A stretch of 64,000 bases of DNA, from positions 1,447,501 to 1,511,500 of the forward strand of contig NZ_JAMZEB010000002.1 in NCBI RefSeq assembly GCF_024172165.1, given 5' to 3'. Position numbers and translations under genes: made by a program. This document shows, piece after piece, positions 58,480 through 64,000 of this stretch. The stretch is from Nonomuraea thailandensis. Its GTDB lineage: Bacteria; Actinomycetota; Actinomycetes; Streptosporangiales; Streptosporangiaceae. The notes beneath the pieces are model-generated. The model was not told the origin of the DNA, made no database searches, and saw nothing but the letters and a program-made list of their open reading frames with translations. Each line of letters starts with the position of its first letter. Positions within the stretch are counted from its first letter, which is position 1.

Positions 58480-59499
58480 ATGACCATCGACGCCTTCATC
58501 GACGCCCTCCCCAAGGTCGAGCTGCACGTCCACCTCGTGGGCTCGGCCTCGGTCGCGACCGTGCTGGAGCTGTCGCGCCGCCACCCGGACAGCACGGTGC
58601 CCACCACGGAGGAGGAACTGCGCGACTTCTACCGCTTCGTCGACTTCCCCCACTTCGCCCGCGTCTACCGGGCCGTCAACGAGCTCGTCCGCGAGCCGGA
58701 GGACGTCGCCACCCTCGTCCTCGGCCTGGCCCGCGACCTCGCCCCCCAGGGCGCCCGCTACGCGGAGCTCCAGGTCACCCCGTACGCCCACCGCATGGTC
58801 GGCATGCCCATGCGCGAGGTCACCGAGGCCCTCGACCTGGCCGCCCGCCGCTCCCTGGCCGACTACGGCGTGGAGATGGCCTACATCTTCGACATCCCGG
58901 GCGAGTACGGCGAGGAAGCCGCCAAGGTGACCCTGGAACACGCCCTCCAGGAACCTCCCGCCGCCCTGGTAGGTTTCGGCATCGGCGGCATAGAACAGGA
59001 ACGTCCGAAATACCGCGACACCTTCCGCTCCGCCTTCTCCGCCGCCCGCGCCGCCGGCCTCCACAGCGTCCCCCACGGCGGCGAGATGACCGGCCCCGAG
59101 ACGATCTGGGAGGTCATCGACGGCTACGGCGCCGAGCGCATCGGCCACGGCATCAACTGCCTCACCGACCCCCGCCTGGTGTCCCACCTCCGCGACACCC
59201 AGCTCCCCCTGGACGTCTGCCCCACCTCGAACGTCTGCACCGGCCAGATCACCCGCATCGAGGACCACCCGCTGCCCCGGATGCTGGAGGAGGGCCTGTA
59301 CGTGACGCTGAACAGCGACGACCCGCCCATGTTCGCCACGACGCTGGCGCAGGAGTACCGGGTGGCGCACCAGGTGTTCGGGTTCGGGGAGGAGGAACTG
59401 GCGCAGTTCGCGCGGAACGGGGTGCGGGCGTCGTATCTGGGAGAGGGGCGCAAGCGGGAACTGCTGTCCGAGATCGACGCGCTGGTCAGCGCCGGTTGA
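58480..59499 (+). CDS. add: Adenosine deaminase family protein
   Basis: 339 aa from ATG 58480 (AAGG 8 nt upstream). Zinc ligands HVHLVGS (H16, H18), H199 in HGGEM (usually HAGE), GINCLTDPRLVS, and the SDDPP metal/catalytic motif near 285. VCPTSNVCTG completes the site. HVHLVGS instead of the usual HLHLDGS and HGGE instead of HAGE show a sub-branch, so the substrate may be adenosine, adenine or a related base such as 6-aminodeoxyfutalosine. Role: hydrolytic deamination of purine. Confidence 0.88.
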   Translation: MTIDAFIDALPKVELHVHLVGSASVATVLELSRRHPDSTVPTTEEELRDFYRFVDFPHFARVYRAVNELVREPEDVATLVLGLARDLAPQGARYAELQVTPYAHRMVGMPMREVTEALDLAARRSLADYGVEMAYIFDIPGEYGEEAAKVTLEHALQEPPAALVGFGIGGIEQERPKYRDTFRSAFSAARAAGLHSVPHGGEMTGPETIWEVIDGYGAERIGHGINCLTDPRLVSHLRDTQLPLDVCPTSNVCTGQITRIEDHPLPRMLEEGLYVTLNSDDPPMFATTLAQEYRVAHQVFGFGEEELAQFARNGVRASYLGEGRKRELLSEIDALVSAG

Positions 59500-59713: not shown

Positions 59714-59962
59714 ATGGCTACTCGTGCCGAGTTGATGGACGCGCTGCGCCGCGCCCAGGAATTGTCGGACCAGCACTGGCACTGCCTCGACCGGCCGCTG
59801 CTGCAGATGTCGGGCGGGCGCACCTGGACAGGGCCGGTCGCCGGCAGGTTCGCCGGTGACCTCCTGCACCAGCGCGCCGAACTGTGGCGGGGGCTGCGCG
59901 GCATCATCGACCATCTCCATGAGGAGATCTCACAAGTGACCGTGATGGGTCCGGCCGACTGA
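59714..59962 (+). CDS. WXG100-size helical protein, first gene of an unrecognised cassette
   Basis: 82 aa from ATG 59714 (GGGAGG 5 nt upstream). MATRAELMDALRRAQELSDQ, then HWHCLDRPLLQMSGGRTWTG, and GDLLHQRAELWRGLRGIIDH. Two predicted helices joined at SGGRTWTGP, which stands where WXG100 proteins carry their WxG turn; here it reads TWTG. Length and helix-turn-helix layout suggest an Esx-like partner, but the identity is uncertain. Stop overlaps the next gene by one base. Confidence 0.7.
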   Translation: MATRAELMDALRRAQELSDQHWHCLDRPLLQMSGGRTWTGPVAGRFAGDLLHQRAELWRGLRGIIDHLHEEISQVTVMGPAD

Positions 59963-62055
59963 TGCCCTTTTCCTCTATCGATCCCCGAGAAATGCACCAA
60001 CTCGGGCATGGTGTGCAAAATGCGGGAAAAGGGCTGGCGGATTGCGCGGCGCGGCTTCGGGCGATTCTGAACCAGGTCGAAATCACCCACCCGGGCGTGG
60101 CCTCGATCGGCCGGGTGGGGCAGTGGCTGATCGAGCAGGCACCCGACCTCTACCGGCGGCGTGATCTGGCGTACGAGGCCGAGAAGGTCGACGTGGACGT
60201 GTGCGGCCATCCCGTGCCCGGCGCGACCGTCCGGCCCGGGCTCACGCGGATCGACGAGTCGAGGATGATCCCGGCCGAGATCCGCGCGCAGGCGGCCCAG
60301 GCGGTCTCATGGGCAGAGGCCGCCGCGCGGGGCGACGCGGGCGCGGCGGAGAGACTCGCGGCGTACGCGGGATGGATGGGCGACCCTCGGTTCGCCACCG
60401 CCCTGATCGAGCAGCTCGGCCCGCAGGGGCTGGCCACGCTGCCCGCCGCCATGGGCACGCGCGTACGTCATGCGCTCAACGCGGGCGACGGCTCGGCGGA
60501 GGCGGTCCGGCGGCGCAATCGTGACGTGCTGTCCCTGCTCGGCAAGGCCCTCGCCACGGCGACCGACCCGAGCAAGAGCGCGCACGTCAACCGGCGATTC
60601 CTCGAGGAGCTGAAGCGGCAGGGGCGTGCGGAGATCCAGGTTCCGGGGATGCGCGGGCAGATGACGGTCCACGGATACTGGTCGCTCGGCCAGATCCTCG
60701 CGGCGGCGCCGGAGGAGGCCTTCAGCGAAGCGTTCATGACCACGATCGGCCAGGACATGATCCGGTGGGATCGCGACTTCCTCAAGAAGAACGGCGAGTG
60801 GCCGCTGGCGCGCGACACCGATGCCTACGACCTGCCCGCTCCTCTGGACACGAGGCCCTTCTCCGGCTCCGGCGAGACAGGAGCCGCCGATCCGGTCGCC
60901 GCGCTGCTGACCGTCGCGAGCACGTCGAAGGAACGTTCCCAGGCGCTCATCGGGAGCAGGGATCTCCTGGCATACCTCATGGACGACCGGCGTCCGCAGT
61001 GGGGCATGGGCGACCGCGGAGAAGCCCTGGGGGAGGCCATGGAGGCGGCGATGAAGGGGGCGGACGCCGAGTCCAAGCGGCTGGCCGTCATGGCGACGCA
61101 GATCTACTCGGACGTCGTCGCGTCGCACCTGTCGGTCAGCGATGCGGGGGAGGTCGGGATCAAGAACCCGTCGGAGCTCGATCGGCTCTCCGGCGTCCGC
61201 GACAACATGGGCCGCATCCTTGCCGAGCACATCGAGGACATGGTGTTCGCTCATTTCCAGCGCCATCCTCGATTGCCCGACGACCAGCTCACGGGCGACT
61301 TCGACGGAAGGCCCACCGCCCGCTTCAACTCCACCGATCTTGATCGTGCCCTGCTCGACGTGGCGATCGACGACAGAGCCTATGAGGCATTGCTCCATGC
61401 GCAGGTCGCGCATTGGCGAGGCAAGATCGATCATGCGCTGGCGATGCGCGACAGAGACAGGACGGCCAACACGATCGCGCTCGACTCCGTGGCGCTCGGC
61501 CATCTGACAGAGGCGCGCCGGACGGCCCTGGTCAGTTGGGGCCAGGATGCGGACGCGGCCGATGGGGCGCTGCGGAAGCTGGTCGAACGAGGCGTCGGCC
61601 TCGTCCCGATCCCCTTCGCCCAGCAGGTCGGCAAGCTGGGGCTGAAGGCGGCGGACGAGATCTACGACGGCTTCGTCAAGGACGGCTACGCGAAGGCCGG
61701 GGACTGGCTGGTGAAGCAGTGCGGGCATGCGGGAGGGAAGACCGAGGTGGCTTACAGCGACGCCGCCTCGAACGACATAGCCGCCCAAGAGCTGGTGAAG
61801 CAGATGCTCGCGTCGTCCGCCGCCGCTCACGGCGCATACAGGCGCGACGACCTCAATGAACGATTCATGATCGGCGACCCACCGCGGGTCAAGGAGCCGA
61901 GTCTCATGGGCAGGGACGAGTACGACGGTTTCACACGCTGGCTGGCCGACAACACCACGGTGCCGGCCGACTACGGGGAAGCACAACAATCCGCCGCCGC
62001 CGGAGCCGTCACTTTCCGGAACAACGTCAAGGCCGGGATGGACGACGATGGGTAG
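59962..62055 (+). CDS. Large protein of unknown function, second gene of the cassette
   Basis: 697 aa from ATG 59962, starting on the last base of the previous stop (TGATG). No signal peptide or membrane span. Residues 1-110 are helical, and start MPFSSIDPREMHQLGHGVQN. Repeated helical blocks follow: GWMGDPRFATALIEQLGPQG, AALLTVASTSKERSQALIGS, RDLLAYLMDDRRPQWGMGDR, and in the C-terminal part VERGVGLVPIPFAQQVGKLG then GYAKAGDWL. Large proteins of this sort occur in actinomycetes next to WXG100-like genes and may carry an uncharacterised domain (possibly DUF6571). No catalytic motif is obvious. Confidence 0.8.
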   Translation: MPFSSIDPREMHQLGHGVQNAGKGLADCAARLRAILNQVEITHPGVASIGRVGQWLIEQAPDLYRRRDLAYEAEKVDVDVCGHPVPGATVRPGLTRIDESRMIPAEIRAQAAQAVSWAEAAARGDAGAAERLAAYAGWMGDPRFATALIEQLGPQGLATLPAAMGTRVRHALNAGDGSAEAVRRRNRDVLSLLGKALATATDPSKSAHVNRRFLEELKRQGRAEIQVPGMRGQMTVHGYWSLGQILAAAPEEAFSEAFMTTIGQDMIRWDRDFLKKNGEWPLARDTDAYDLPAPLDTRPFSGSGETGAADPVAALLTVASTSKERSQALIGSRDLLAYLMDDRRPQWGMGDRGEALGEAMEAAMKGADAESKRLAVMATQIYSDVVASHLSVSDAGEVGIKNPSELDRLSGVRDNMGRILAEHIEDMVFAHFQRHPRLPDDQLTGDFDGRPTARFNSTDLDRALLDVAIDDRAYEALLHAQVAHWRGKIDHALAMRDRDRTANTIALDSVALGHLTEARRTALVSWGQDADAADGALRKLVERGVGLVPIPFAQQVGKLGLKAADEIYDGFVKDGYAKAGDWLVKQCGHAGGKTEVAYSDAASNDIAAQELVKQMLASSAAAHGAYRRDDLNERFMIGDPPRVKEPSLMGRDEYDGFTRWLADNTTVPADYGEAQQSAAAGAVTFRNNVKAGMDDDG

Positions 62056-62629
62056 GCGCTGGGCGGGATGGCAGTGGGTGGCCGGAGTGTTCGTGCTGAT
62101 GACCGGTTGCACGCCGGACAAGGCGGCGCACATACCGCTACCGAGTCCGGTGCGCGGGCCGGTCGCCGATCGCCCGCCCTACCTGTGCTACTTCATCCCG
62201 CAGGCCGCCGTGGCGGAGCTGACCGGCTACAGAGGGCCTCACCGGGCGGGAGACGACAAGCGACATCCTGACAGTTACAGCTGCGTCATCGCGAACGCCG
62301 AGCAAAGCCTCTTCATCACGAGCTATGACGTATCGGCCTCGCGCGGAGCCATCGAACGCTACATGACCTTCGGGGAGAAACGCGACCCGGCCGACCTGCC
62401 CAAGGAGCTCGGTACCGGGCTGATCAGCGATTTCGATCTTCGCATGCGTCCGTACCGGACGGTGGAGGCGTGGTTCCGCTGTGGATCGGCCAACTCCCTC
62501 ATCGGCATCACCGTCAAGCGGAACCCGGCCCGCGACCAGGACCACGACCTCGTCCAGCTCATGACCATCGCCCAGCGGCGGTTCGCCGAGATGTTCGGTT
62601 GCGACCTCGGCGCCCCGCCGCCCCGCTAA
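62048..62629 (+). CDS. Secreted lipoprotein, third gene of the cassette
   Basis: 193 aa from ATG 62048, overlapping the previous gene by 8 nt. Type II signal peptide WVAGVFVLMTGC with lipobox LMTGC (lipidated Cys about residue 21). The mature part has ADRPPYLCYFIPQAAVAELT, then SYSCVIANAEQSLFITSYD and AWFRCGSANSLIGITVKRN. Order, size and the paired Cys recall DUF3558-type actinomycete lipoproteins, but this is only a resemblance. Probably anchored outside the membrane. Convergent with pgl, 4 nt apart. Confidence 0.82.
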   Translation: MGRRWAGWQWVAGVFVLMTGCTPDKAAHIPLPSPVRGPVADRPPYLCYFIPQAAVAELTGYRGPHRAGDDKRHPDSYSCVIANAEQSLFITSYDVSASRGAIERYMTFGEKRDPADLPKELGTGLISDFDLRMRPYRTVEAWFRCGSANSLIGITVKRNPARDQDHDLVQLMTIAQRRFAEMFGCDLGAPPPR

Positions 62630-62633
62630 CGCG

Positions 62634-63407
62634 TCACGGCGACGCCAGGCGTCCCAGGCCCGGCGGGATCTTGCTCGCCGCGGCCCGGTCCAGCAGGAAC
62701 AACGTCCGCCCGCGCCCCCGTGCCCCCGCCGCCGGCACCTGGACGGGCCCGGACTCCGAGAGGGCGAGCCGGACCGCGCCCGACTTCTCCTCGCCGGCCG
62801 CCACCACCCACACCTCGCGGGAGGCCTGGATGGCGGGCAGGGTCAGGGAGATGCGGGTGGGCGGTGGCTTGGGGGAGCCGTGGACCGCCACCACCGGGCG
62901 GGTGTCGTAGAGCGCGGGCATGCCCGGGAAGAGGGAGGCCACGTGGGAGTCGGGGCCCATGCCGAGCAGCATCACGTCGAAGCTCGGCACCGGCCCGTGG
63001 TCCTCGGGCCGGGCGGCGGCGCGCAGCTCGGTGGCGTACGCGTCGGCCGACTCCTCGGCCGTCATGCCGGAGTCGGGGCCGCGCATGACGTGCACCCGCG
63101 CGGGGTCCACGTCCACGTGGTCCAGCAGGGCCTCGCGGGCGCCGGTCTCGTTGCGTTCCTCGTCGCCGGTGGGGACGAAGCGTTCGTCGCCCCACCAGAT
63201 GTCCAGGCGACGCCAGTCGACGGCGTCCCTGGCGGGGGTGGCGGCGATGGCCGCCAGGGTGGCGATGCCGACGGTGCCGCCCGTCAGGACGATCGACGCC
63301 GAGCCCTTGGCCGACTGCGCGTCGACCAGCCGGGTGATGATCCGCGCGGCGACGGCCTTGGCCAGGACGTCGGCGTCGCGGTGAACGACGATGCCGGGAA
63401 CGCTCAT
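62634..63407 (-). CDS. pgl: 6-phosphogluconolactonase
   Basis: 257 aa from ATG 63407 (GGGAG 6 nt upstream). Hydrolyses 6-phosphogluconolactone in the pentose phosphate pathway. SIVLTGGTVGIATLAAIAAT (phosphate loop), DIWWGDERFVPTGDEERNET, VMLLGMGPDSHVASLFPGMP, and the C-terminal RISLTLPAIQASREVWVVAA. MGPDSHVASLFPG is the family signature (D-GHxASLFPG type). Lies just after opcA, as in other actinomycetes (tkt-tal-zwf-opcA-pgl). Confidence 0.96.
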   Translation of the reverse strand: MSVPGIVVHRDADVLAKAVAARIITRLVDAQSAKGSASIVLTGGTVGIATLAAIAATPARDAVDWRRLDIWWGDERFVPTGDEERNETGAREALLDHVDVDPARVHVMRGPDSGMTAEESADAYATELRAAARPEDHGPVPSFDVMLLGMGPDSHVASLFPGMPALYDTRPVVAVHGSPKPPPTRISLTLPAIQASREVWVVAAGEEKSGAVRLALSESGPVQVPAAGARGRGRTLFLLDRAAASKIPPGLGRLASP

Positions 63408-63430
63408 GGTCGTCTCCCTTTGAACTGCCG

Positions 63431-64000
63431 TCATCCCTTGTACGTCCTCGCGAACCGCTTGACCGCGGCCTCATAGATCTCGTCGGTGTCGAGCCTGCGC
63501 AGCTCCTCGGCCATCAGCTCGGAGGTCTGCCGCCTGGCCAGGGCCACGTTCCTGTCGGGCTGGCCGGGGCGGCGGAGCGTGGCCAGGCGGGCGTCGGTCC
63601 GCACGACCGCGAGCTCGCCGTCGCCGAGCTGCAGGCGTACGGAGGTCAGGCCGGGCCCGGAGGAGTCGACGACCTTGATCGGGGCGCCGAGCCGCTCCGA
63701 CAGCCAGGCGGCCAGCAGCGGCGCGCTCGGGTGGCCGGGGGAGGCCTCCACGGTGCCCTTGCGCACCTTGCCCACCGGCTGGTCGAAGGCGGCGGCCAGC
63801 AGGCTGCGCCACGGCGTCAGCCTGGCCCAGGACAGGTCGGTGTCGCCGCGCGCGTACCCCTTTGCCCGGGTGACCAGCGACCCGACGCCGCCGTCGTCGA
63901 AGCCCTTGGCGTCGGTGATGCGCCGTTGTGCCAGCGCCCCGATCGCGTCCTTGGACGGCGCGTCGGGGGCCGCGCCCGGCCACCACGCCACGACGGGGGT
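63431..64000 (-). CDS. opcA: Glucose-6-phosphate dehydrogenase assembly protein OpcA, C-terminal part
   Basis: 190 codons from the right window edge to the stop at 63431; the start lies beyond 64000. Frame open to the edge (TPVVAWWPGAAPDAPSKDAI). RITDAKGFDDGGVGSLV, YARGDTDLSWARLTPWRSLL, AAFDQPVGKVRKGTVEA match OpcA. It is needed for activity of glucose-6-phosphate dehydrogenase (zwf) in actinobacteria. Followed by pgl at 23-nt spacing. Confidence 0.94.
   Translation of the reverse strand, partial: TPVVAWWPGAAPDAPSKDAIGALAQRRITDAKGFDDGGVGSLVTRAKGYARGDTDLSWARLTPWRSLLAAAFDQPVGKVRKGTVEASPGHPSAPLLAAWLSERLGAPIKVVDSSGPGLTSVRLQLGDGELAVVRTDARLATLRRPGQPDRNVALARRQTSELMAEELRRLDTDEIYEAAVKRFARTYKG

What the first reader, a model, noticed from the sequence alone, without database searches (positions are those of the whole stretch)
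59714..62629. Three-gene cassette: WXG100-size protein, 697-aa protein, lipoprotein
Seen: three tightly overlapping genes (TGATG; 8-nt overlap) of 82, 697 and 193 aa. The first is a two-helix protein with a TWTG turn. The second has repeated helical blocks and no signal peptide, membrane span or known motif. The third is a lipoprotein with paired cysteines. Known: WXG100-family partners travel with large substrates of type VII secretion or with toxin-like proteins. Inferred: a small secretion or contact-dependent module whose effector is not yet described; an immunity role for the lipoprotein is only one option.
Basis: partly seen in the sequence, partly recalled or inferred. Interest (0 to 1): 0.65.

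Follow-up and report, generated by a model that had tools for sequence, protein, structure and literature searches.

The report
Conserved three-gene secretion-linked surface module
Three overlapping bacterial genes form a unit that stays together across many actinomycetes; they probably encode a large helical protein, a small partner that helps export it, and a lipoprotein that meets it at the cell surface, but what the unit does is still unknown.

Summary
In detail: three overlapping genes of 82, 697 and 193 aa at 59714-62629. The 697-aa protein is Pfam DUF6571 (32 bits, cut-off 27), a family without assigned function. The trio recurs. In 38 loci with the window's gene order, the WXG-like gene was found in 36 and the lipoprotein in 36; three gaps are contig ends, one a truncated gene. 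In 20 more divergent loci the arrangement differs, yet a lipoprotein gene is beside DUF6571 in all 20, ten times from a second family on the opposite strand. Only one of four congeners shares the flanks. The 82-aa family resembles WXG100 by profile. The 697-aa model is a hairpin plus helical solenoid; no toxin domain passed a cut-off. ESX is not required: 21 of 63 positive genomes lack EccB. All 27 positives scanned have an EccC-family ATPase; in two genomes of one genus the module sits inside such a locus. Best reading: a type VII-like exported helical protein with targeting partner and surface lipoprotein partner. Immunity is possible, unproven.

The parts
59714..59962 (+). gene 1: 82-aa WXG100-like protein (P0001)
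   Evidence: ORF; W38/G40 invariant in 53 of 53 homologues; profile match to WXG100 proteins, probability 89.6, E 1.9e-6; no Pfam hit on its own
59825..59833 (+). WTG codons (W-x-G turn between the two expected helices)
   Evidence: sequence; invariant W and G; gene 1 itself was not folded
59962..62055 (+). gene 2: 697-aa DUF6571 protein (P0002)
   Evidence: PF20211 32 bits, cut-off 27; model mean pLDDT 81.8, pTM 0.81
59983..60186 (+). N-terminal helical hairpin of gene 2 (residues 8-75)
   Evidence: helices 8-38 and 44-75 in the model; best conserved part among congeners; its divergence tracks gene 1
60151..60165 (+). YRRRD (a YxxxD-like stretch) at the end of the hairpin
   Evidence: present only in the window's clade, 5 of 36 type A rows
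60274..61590 (+). helical solenoid body of gene 2 (about residues 105-543)
   Evidence: model; weak ARM/HEAT-type matches, best Z 8.1
62048..62629 (+). gene 3: 193-aa lipoprotein (P0003), probably a Mog1/PsbP-like fold
   Evidence: C21, C47, C79 invariant in 46 of 46; model mean pLDDT 88.7; Z 10.5 to 3v7b_B, 7.9 to Mog1
62108..62110 (+). codon of the predicted lipidated cysteine (C21)
   Evidence: the lipobox consensus is recalled

Best explanation
The three genes encode one functional unit of the cell envelope. Gene 1 (WXG100-like) pairs in the cytoplasm with the N-terminal helical hairpin of gene 2 (DUF6571). The pair forms a WXG100-type bundle that acts as export signal for an EccC/EssC-like type VII ATPase. 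The large helical-solenoid body of gene 2 is thereby moved out of the cell without a Sec signal peptide. Gene 3, a Sec-exported lipoprotein with a small, probably Mog1/PsbP-like domain, stays on the outer face of the membrane and binds the gene 2 protein there, as its receptor or anchor or to neutralise it. Shown: the genes, the WXG motif, the hairpin-plus-solenoid model, the invariant cysteines, conservation of the set, physical linkage to an EccC locus in two genomes of one genus. Inferred: the pairing, the export, and binding by the lipoprotein.
For: Conserved set: gene 1 family in 36 of 38 and gene 3 family in 36 of 38 type A loci; three gaps are contig ends and one a gene 2 without its N-terminal part. 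In 33 of the 36 loci with both, genes 1 and 2 overlap (31 ATGA, 2 TGATG). In 20 type B/C loci a lipoprotein is beside DUF6571 in all 20: 9 of the gene 3 family, 10 of a second family on the opposite strand, 1 by eye. Outside the family, 12 of 14 loci have a lipoprotein-like ORF within 1.5 kb (9 by HMM, 3 by eye) and 9 of 14 a gene 1 match, two weak. The trio moves as a block: one of four congeners shares the flanks. WXG likeness. Gene 1 divergence tracks the gene 2 hairpin more than conservation-matched columns (partial 0.79 against at most 0.61 in 40 draws, type A). EccC link: in both g37 genomes with a type A module it lies between a biotin carboxylase gene (best identity 82-83% to those of EccC-like loci; found in 11 of 15) and an EccC-like ATPase, behind a homologue of the WXG100 genes of those loci. 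All 27 positive genomes scanned have an EccC-family ATPase of 200 bits or more; among EccB-negative genomes 20 of 20 positives against 8 of 17 negatives (Fisher p 0.0002).
Against: Gene 1 itself has no Pfam hit and only 3 of 53 members match PF06013 even at E 1, best 0.024. The hairpin of gene 2 matches WXG100 only at probability 46.6. The YxxxD stretch is confined to 5 of 36 type A rows. Only 2 of 38 type A and none of 20 type B/C loci have an EccC-like gene in the stretch fetched, at most about 9 kb either side. The EccC association weakens to p 0.023 with nine size- and completeness-matched negatives and ignores kinship. Four DUF6571 loci (L087, L103, L200, L211) have no detectable WXG partner. 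In type A the hairpin is also the segment next to gene 1, so block inheritance could cause the tracking; in type B/C another segment (0.61) tracks better than the hairpin (0.44). Secretion was not observed.
Confidence: 0.45

Rival explanations
1. Effector-immunity module: the exported DUF6571 protein harms neighbouring cells at the membrane or wall, gene 1 is its targeting partner and the lipoprotein is the immunity protein that protects the producer.
For: Lipoprotein beside DUF6571 in all 20 divergent loci, with two families in that place that one HMM does not join; lipoprotein genes survive without an intact DUF6571 gene in 5 of 20 checked loci, two with DUF6571 remnants; the trio evolves faster than its neighbours (dN 0.19-0.25 against 0.02-0.08 in one genome pair); the gene 2 block of residues 651-697 is the least conserved among congeners (0.49); several DUF6571 loci in one genome; a Tsi3-type immunity chain is among the weaker fold matches (Z 6.8).
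Against: No toxin family passed a cut-off (the one toxin-named row among the 25 shown, PMT_C3, is 1 of 52 members at E 0.032) and no enzyme fold stood out; the C-terminal half aligns through the family; Z 6.8 is within noise; the sample of orphan lipoproteins was picked, not random.
Confidence: 0.25
2. Structural or adhesive surface module: the helical protein is displayed on the hyphal or spore surface and the lipoprotein is its anchor; no antagonism.
For: Helical solenoid, typical of binding scaffolds; purifying selection.
Against: Fast evolution relative to neighbours and change of lipoprotein family are more usual for conflict; no wall-binding domain passed a cut-off.
Confidence: 0.2
3. 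Cytoplasmic-plus-membrane regulatory module unrelated to secretion; the WXG likeness is only a common helical-hairpin shape.
For: Weak sequence likeness to PF06013, loose link to EccC loci, no secretion data.
Against: Invariant W and G in 53 of 53, in-register profile match, and the module directly behind WXG100 genes inside EccC-like loci in two genomes.
Confidence: 0.1

Closest known systems
LXG effector cassettes of type VIIb secretion with Lap1/Lap2 targeting partners (PMC9600955, abstract and outline seen)
   Same: Small WXG100-like partner genes that co-occur with a large protein with an N-terminal targeting domain; partner and effector form a complex that promotes export; further genes protect the producer (recalled).
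   Different: No LXG match in the rows seen, no variable C-terminal toxin domain, no conserved YxxxD motif; found in actinomycetes; third gene is a lipoprotein that belongs to at least two families.
Pfam PF20211, DUF6571
   Same: Gene 2 is a member (32 bits, cut-off 27).
   Different: No function assigned. No paper in the library searched names it, and the family's one-line description does not mention partners.
WXG100 family, PF06013
   Same: Invariant W-x-G turn; profile match at probability 89.6.
   Different: Gene 1 itself does not reach PF06013; its family sits with DUF6571 rather than in an Esx pair.
Mog1/PsbP-like extracytoplasmic proteins (PknH sensor domain, TiME, LpqN, MTC28) and Dip2269
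   Same: Fold of the lipoprotein model: Z 10.5 to Dip2269, 7.9 to the PknH domain and to Mog1. Grouping these as one fold is recalled.
   Different: No sequence match in the Protein Data Bank at E 10; function of Dip2269 not known to me.

Membership tests
DUF6571 (PF20211) | score above the curated cut-off | tested here: met
   32.0 bits against 27; the genome-wide search scored one stretch of the same gene at 21 bits
WXG100 (PF06013) | score above the curated cut-off | tested here: not met
   gene 1: no Pfam hit; 3 of 53 family members match at E up to 1, best 0.024
WXG100 (PF06013) | about 100 residues with a W-x-G turn | tested here: met
   82 aa; W38 and G40 invariant in 53 of 53; profile match to WXG100 proteins with W-x-G in register
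ESX / type VIIa secretion cluster | EccB or EccC genes beside the module | tested here: not met
   no EccC-like gene in the 19.9 kb round the window's module; the genome's EccB gene is at C2:8.85 Mb; 21 of 63 positive genomes lack EccB
type VII exported substrate | conserved YxxxD/E export motif | tested here: not met
   YRRRD in 5 of 36 type A rows only
type VII exported substrate | secretion depends on an EccC/EssC ATPase | not testable with these tools
   co-occurrence only: 27 of 27 positives scanned have an EccC-family ATPase
polymorphic toxin (WXG/LXG type) | conserved N-terminus with a swapped C-terminal toxin domain | tested here: not met
   no toxin family above a cut-off (one search showed 25 of 48 weak families); homologues align along gene 2, though the last 47 residues are the least conserved
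bacterial lipoprotein | N-terminal hydrophobic stretch and an invariant cysteine in a lipobox | tested here: met
   C21 invariant in 46 of 46; lipidation itself not tested
Mog1/PsbP-like fold | fold match to named members well above noise | tested here: inconclusive
   Mog1 7.9, PknH domain 7.9, PsbP 7.1, LpqN 6.4, all under 8; only Dip2269 (3v7b_B) stands out at Z 10.5, rmsd 3.0, 122 aligned
DUF3558 (PF12079) | score above cut-off | tested here: not met
   no hit for gene 3; 1 of 46 homologues at E 0.0011

The most novel reading that the evidence does not exclude
An undescribed, class-wide contact or kin-recognition system of actinomycetes: an exported, non-enzymatic helical-solenoid effector guided by a dedicated WXG-like partner through an EccC/EssC-like ATPase that is separate from ESX, and neutralised or received by interchangeable surface lipoproteins.
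Probability: 0.25. Interest if true: 0.78.

Novelty: new variant of a known kind. Interest (0 to 1): 0.55.

Why it matters
A protein family of unknown function, matched in 97 of 394 genomes sampled from the class, is tied here to a WXG-like partner and to a lipoprotein. That gives a concrete, testable hypothesis for its role and for what the EccC-like ATPases of genomes without EccB export.

Tried and rejected
Simple ESX link: rejected, because 21 of 63 positive genomes lack EccB. YxxxD export motif in gene 2: seen at residues 64-68 but confined to the window's clade. Pfam, NCBIfam and PADLOC scans of the three proteins: nothing beyond DUF6571 above a cut-off and no PADLOC row at E 0.1. TPR_23 (EspA-like) matched 6 of 52 DUF6571 relatives, best E 4e-5, but none of ten single proteins scanned later at E 0.01, so it was not pressed. 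The hairpins alone gave no useful Pfam match. Fold search of gene 2: mostly ARM/HEAT-type rows, Z at most 8.1, below the stated noise for helical repeats; no conclusion on a known fold, and the hairpin was barely tested there. A contact between the hairpin and gene 1 could not be modelled, as only single chains can be folded. Sequence search of the Protein Data Bank: nothing for gene 3; two rows at E 0.4-0.5 for gene 2; for gene 1 apolipoprotein helices (best E 0.003), which I take to be coincidence, and EsxA at E 0.7. Literature: no paper in the library names DUF6571. Other searches gave background listings; I saw the abstract and outline of PMC9600955 and passages of PMC3482391 and PMC5853079.

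Selection of loci. Type A regions are 36 regions round strong matches, plus the window's own locus and the one named relative. Partial hits in G001, G064 (C56) and G089 and most of the weak rows were not fetched. Type B/C are 16 of the weak rows plus four own-genome paralogues; a fifth own-genome weak hit (L013/L089, E 0.62) was fetched and not used. L053 and L054 are the two halves of one gene at contig ends. L086 and L102 were left out of alignment A1, and L086's lipoprotein was judged by eye. One type A locus (L063) also has a distant second-family lipoprotein about 4 kb away. Of the gene 3 matches some (for example G138:C75 and G146:C46) were not fetched. G033, counted as module-negative in the EccC comparison, has a weak DUF6571 profile match. 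G181 (73% complete, EccB-negative, positive) was not scanned for EccC.
Full report
What is there. They are under purifying selection: dN/dS against four congeners is 0.14-0.34 for gene 1, 0.25-0.34 for gene 2 and 0.16-0.32 for gene 3. Five flanking genes compared with one congener give 0.07-0.25. In that same pair the module is 65-74% identical in amino acids while the flanks are 88-96% identical. The genome is 13.8 Mb; the only named relative found is Nonomuraea candida, with 65% identity of gene 2, so the genus is probably Nonomuraea (inference).

Gene 2 is DUF6571. It scores 32 bits against PF20211 with a cut-off of 27. No function is assigned, and no paper in the library searched names the family. 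A profile of the family finds it in 97 of 394 genomes of the class; the single protein finds relatives in 63 of 200 genomes of the family.

The set is conserved. I fetched 36 regions around strong matches, with the window locus and the N. candida locus (38 type A loci). Iterated HMMs found the gene 1 family in 36 of 38 and the gene 3 family in 36 of 38. The exceptions are L051 (gene 2 lacks its N-terminal part), L053, L054 and L061 (contig ends). In 33 of the 36 loci with genes 1 and 2 the two overlap, 31 as ATGA and 2 as TGATG, with starts chosen by script. In 20 divergent loci (16 from weak matches and four own-genome paralogues) DUF6571 comes first. The gene 1 family follows it in 17 of 20; L086 has instead a borderline PF06013 gene (24 bits, below the cut-off); L087 and L103 have none found. 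The lipoprotein is of the gene 3 family in 9 of 20. In 10 of 20 it is of a second family, about 150 aa, just behind DUF6571 on the opposite strand and, where the WXG-like gene was found, between the two. In L086 another lipoprotein-like ORF lies just behind the WXG-like gene on the opposite strand (by eye). In 14 loci outside the family (L186-L199, flanks of at most 1.5 kb) a gene 1 match lies beside DUF6571 in 9, two of them weak, and a lipoprotein-like ORF in 12: 9 by HMM and 3 by eye; a further one in L199 is cut by the end of the locus.

The set, not the place, is conserved. Of four congeners only one shares the window's flanking genes. The set is not absolute. A search with the gene 3 profile found it in 58 of 200 genomes. 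I fetched 20 of these matches that were not beside a DUF6571 gene seen before: 15 do have DUF6571 next to them (one only a fragment at a contig end) and 5 do not. Of the five, L206 keeps a piece of the DUF6571 N-terminus and L212 a piece of the C-terminus; L202 and L212 keep the gene 1 family; L213 and L214 show only the lipoprotein. So lipoprotein genes can outlive DUF6571, whereas none of the DUF6571 loci that I read in the family with visible flanks lacked a lipoprotein. That is what an effector-protector pair would give, but the sample was picked.

Gene 1 is WXG100-like. W38 and G40 are invariant in 53 of 53. The family profile matches WXG100 proteins of these genomes with W-x-G in register (probability 89.6, E 1.9e-6), and the gene 1 HMM finds the WXG100 genes of 9 EccC-like loci (best E 6e-7 in that small set). 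It does not reach PF06013 by itself, so I call it WXG100-like, not a member. Gene 2 begins with a predicted hairpin (helices 8-38 and 44-75) followed by a helical solenoid (mean pLDDT 81.8, pTM 0.81; residues 550-601 and a few shorter stretches are below 50). The solenoid resembles ARM/HEAT proteins only weakly (best Z 8.1). The N-terminal part is the best conserved among congeners (0.80 and 0.76 identity for residues 1-50 and 51-100) and the last block the least (0.49 for 651-697). Likeness of the hairpin to WXG100 is inconclusive (probability 46.6).

Pairing of genes 1 and 2. Distances of gene 1 follow those of the hairpin beyond the rest of gene 2: partial correlation 0.79, against at most 0.61 in 40 conservation-matched draws, in 33 type A loci. 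In 17 type B/C loci, where gene 1 lies on the other side of gene 2, the hairpin still has 0.44, but a middle segment has 0.61. This fits pairing but does not prove it, because neighbouring segments can share descent.

Gene 3. C21 (lipobox), C47 and C79 are invariant in 46 of 46. The model (pLDDT 88.7) has Z 10.5 to Dip2269 of Corynebacterium diphtheriae. PknH, Mog1, TiME, PsbP, LpqN and others follow at 7.9 or less, in the range where matches can be common shape. I read this as a probable Mog1/PsbP-like fold; the grouping is recalled.

Link to type VII secretion. EccB, the ESX marker, is in 105 of 200 genomes, but 21 of the 63 module genomes lack it, so ESX is not required. All 27 module genomes scanned (20 of the 21 EccB-negative ones and 7 others) have an EccC-family ATPase of at least 200 bits, well above rows of about 105-125 bits that I take to be FtsK, and a PF06013 gene over the cut-off. 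Of 30 module-negative genomes 21 have one. Within EccB-negative genomes the split is 20 of 20 against 8 of 17, p 0.0002, and p 0.023 for nine negatives of similar size and completeness; kinship was not corrected. In both genomes of genus g37 with a type A module (L050, L052) the module lies between a biotin carboxylase gene and an EccC-like ATPase, directly behind a WXG100 gene; that of L050 passes PF06013 (35.5 bits). A comparison bears this out: the biotin carboxylase matches those of 11 of 15 EccC-like loci (best 82-83% identity), the WXG100 matches all nine WXG100 genes of such loci, and the next gene beyond the carboxylase also recurs in 11 of 15. So in this genus the module sits inside the conserved EccC-like locus. 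No other type A or B/C module has an EccC-like gene in the stretch fetched. In the window's own genome another EccC-like locus holds a WXG100 gene and an RHS-repeat protein with a sub-cut-off T7SS_signal match, so such ATPases plausibly export effectors there.

How it most likely works. Gene 1 and the hairpin of gene 2 form a WXG100-type bundle, which targets the pair to an EccC/EssC-like ATPase. The helical body leaves the cell, and the lipoprotein meets it on the outer face of the membrane. The first two steps are inferred from likeness, conservation and linkage; the third from constant genetic company. Whether the lipoprotein anchors, receives or neutralises the protein is open. Fast evolution, change of lipoprotein family, and survival of lipoprotein genes lean to a protective role; the absence of a toxin domain above any cut-off and the family-wide alignment of gene 2 lean away from it.

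Comparison. The arrangement works like the LXG-Lap cassettes of type VIIb secretion (PMC9600955, abstract seen), in which small WXG100-like partners target a large effector. It is not a member: no LXG match in the rows seen, no swapped toxin domain and no conserved YxxxD motif. I rate it a new variant of a known kind, built round a catalogued family of unknown function.

Noticed in passing
L155-L169 (15 EccC-like loci): The EccC-like ATPase often lies beside Flp/Tad pilus-type genes (T2SSE and T2SSF matches, a sub-cut-off RcpC match) and a biotin carboxylase gene: gene clusters 2, 3, 4 and 5 each occur in 11 of 15 loci, a WXG100 gene cluster in 9 of 15.
   Followed up: partly
L161:10219-14911 (own genome, C2:9.34 Mb): An RHS-repeat protein with a sub-cut-off T7SS_signal match and a WXG100 gene beside an EccC-like ATPase: a likely exported polymorphic protein.
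   Followed up: partly
L085, L088, L093, L094, L096, L097, L099, L100, L103, L105: A second lipoprotein family of about 150 aa on the opposite strand just behind DUF6571; L094 has two copies.
   Followed up: partly
L202, L206, L212: Modules without an intact DUF6571 gene; L206 and L212 keep pieces of it.
   Followed up: partly
L050:6550-7991: Two lipoprotein genes of the gene 3 family in tandem behind one DUF6571 gene.
   Followed up: no
window 58480-59499 and 62634-64000: The module sits between genes that look like an adenosine deaminase and pentose-phosphate genes (names recalled from the sequence, not tested); one of four congeners keeps the same neighbours.
   Followed up: partly
search control of PF20211: Bacillus subtilis gives a sub-cut-off match to DUF6571, not examined.
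   Followed up: no
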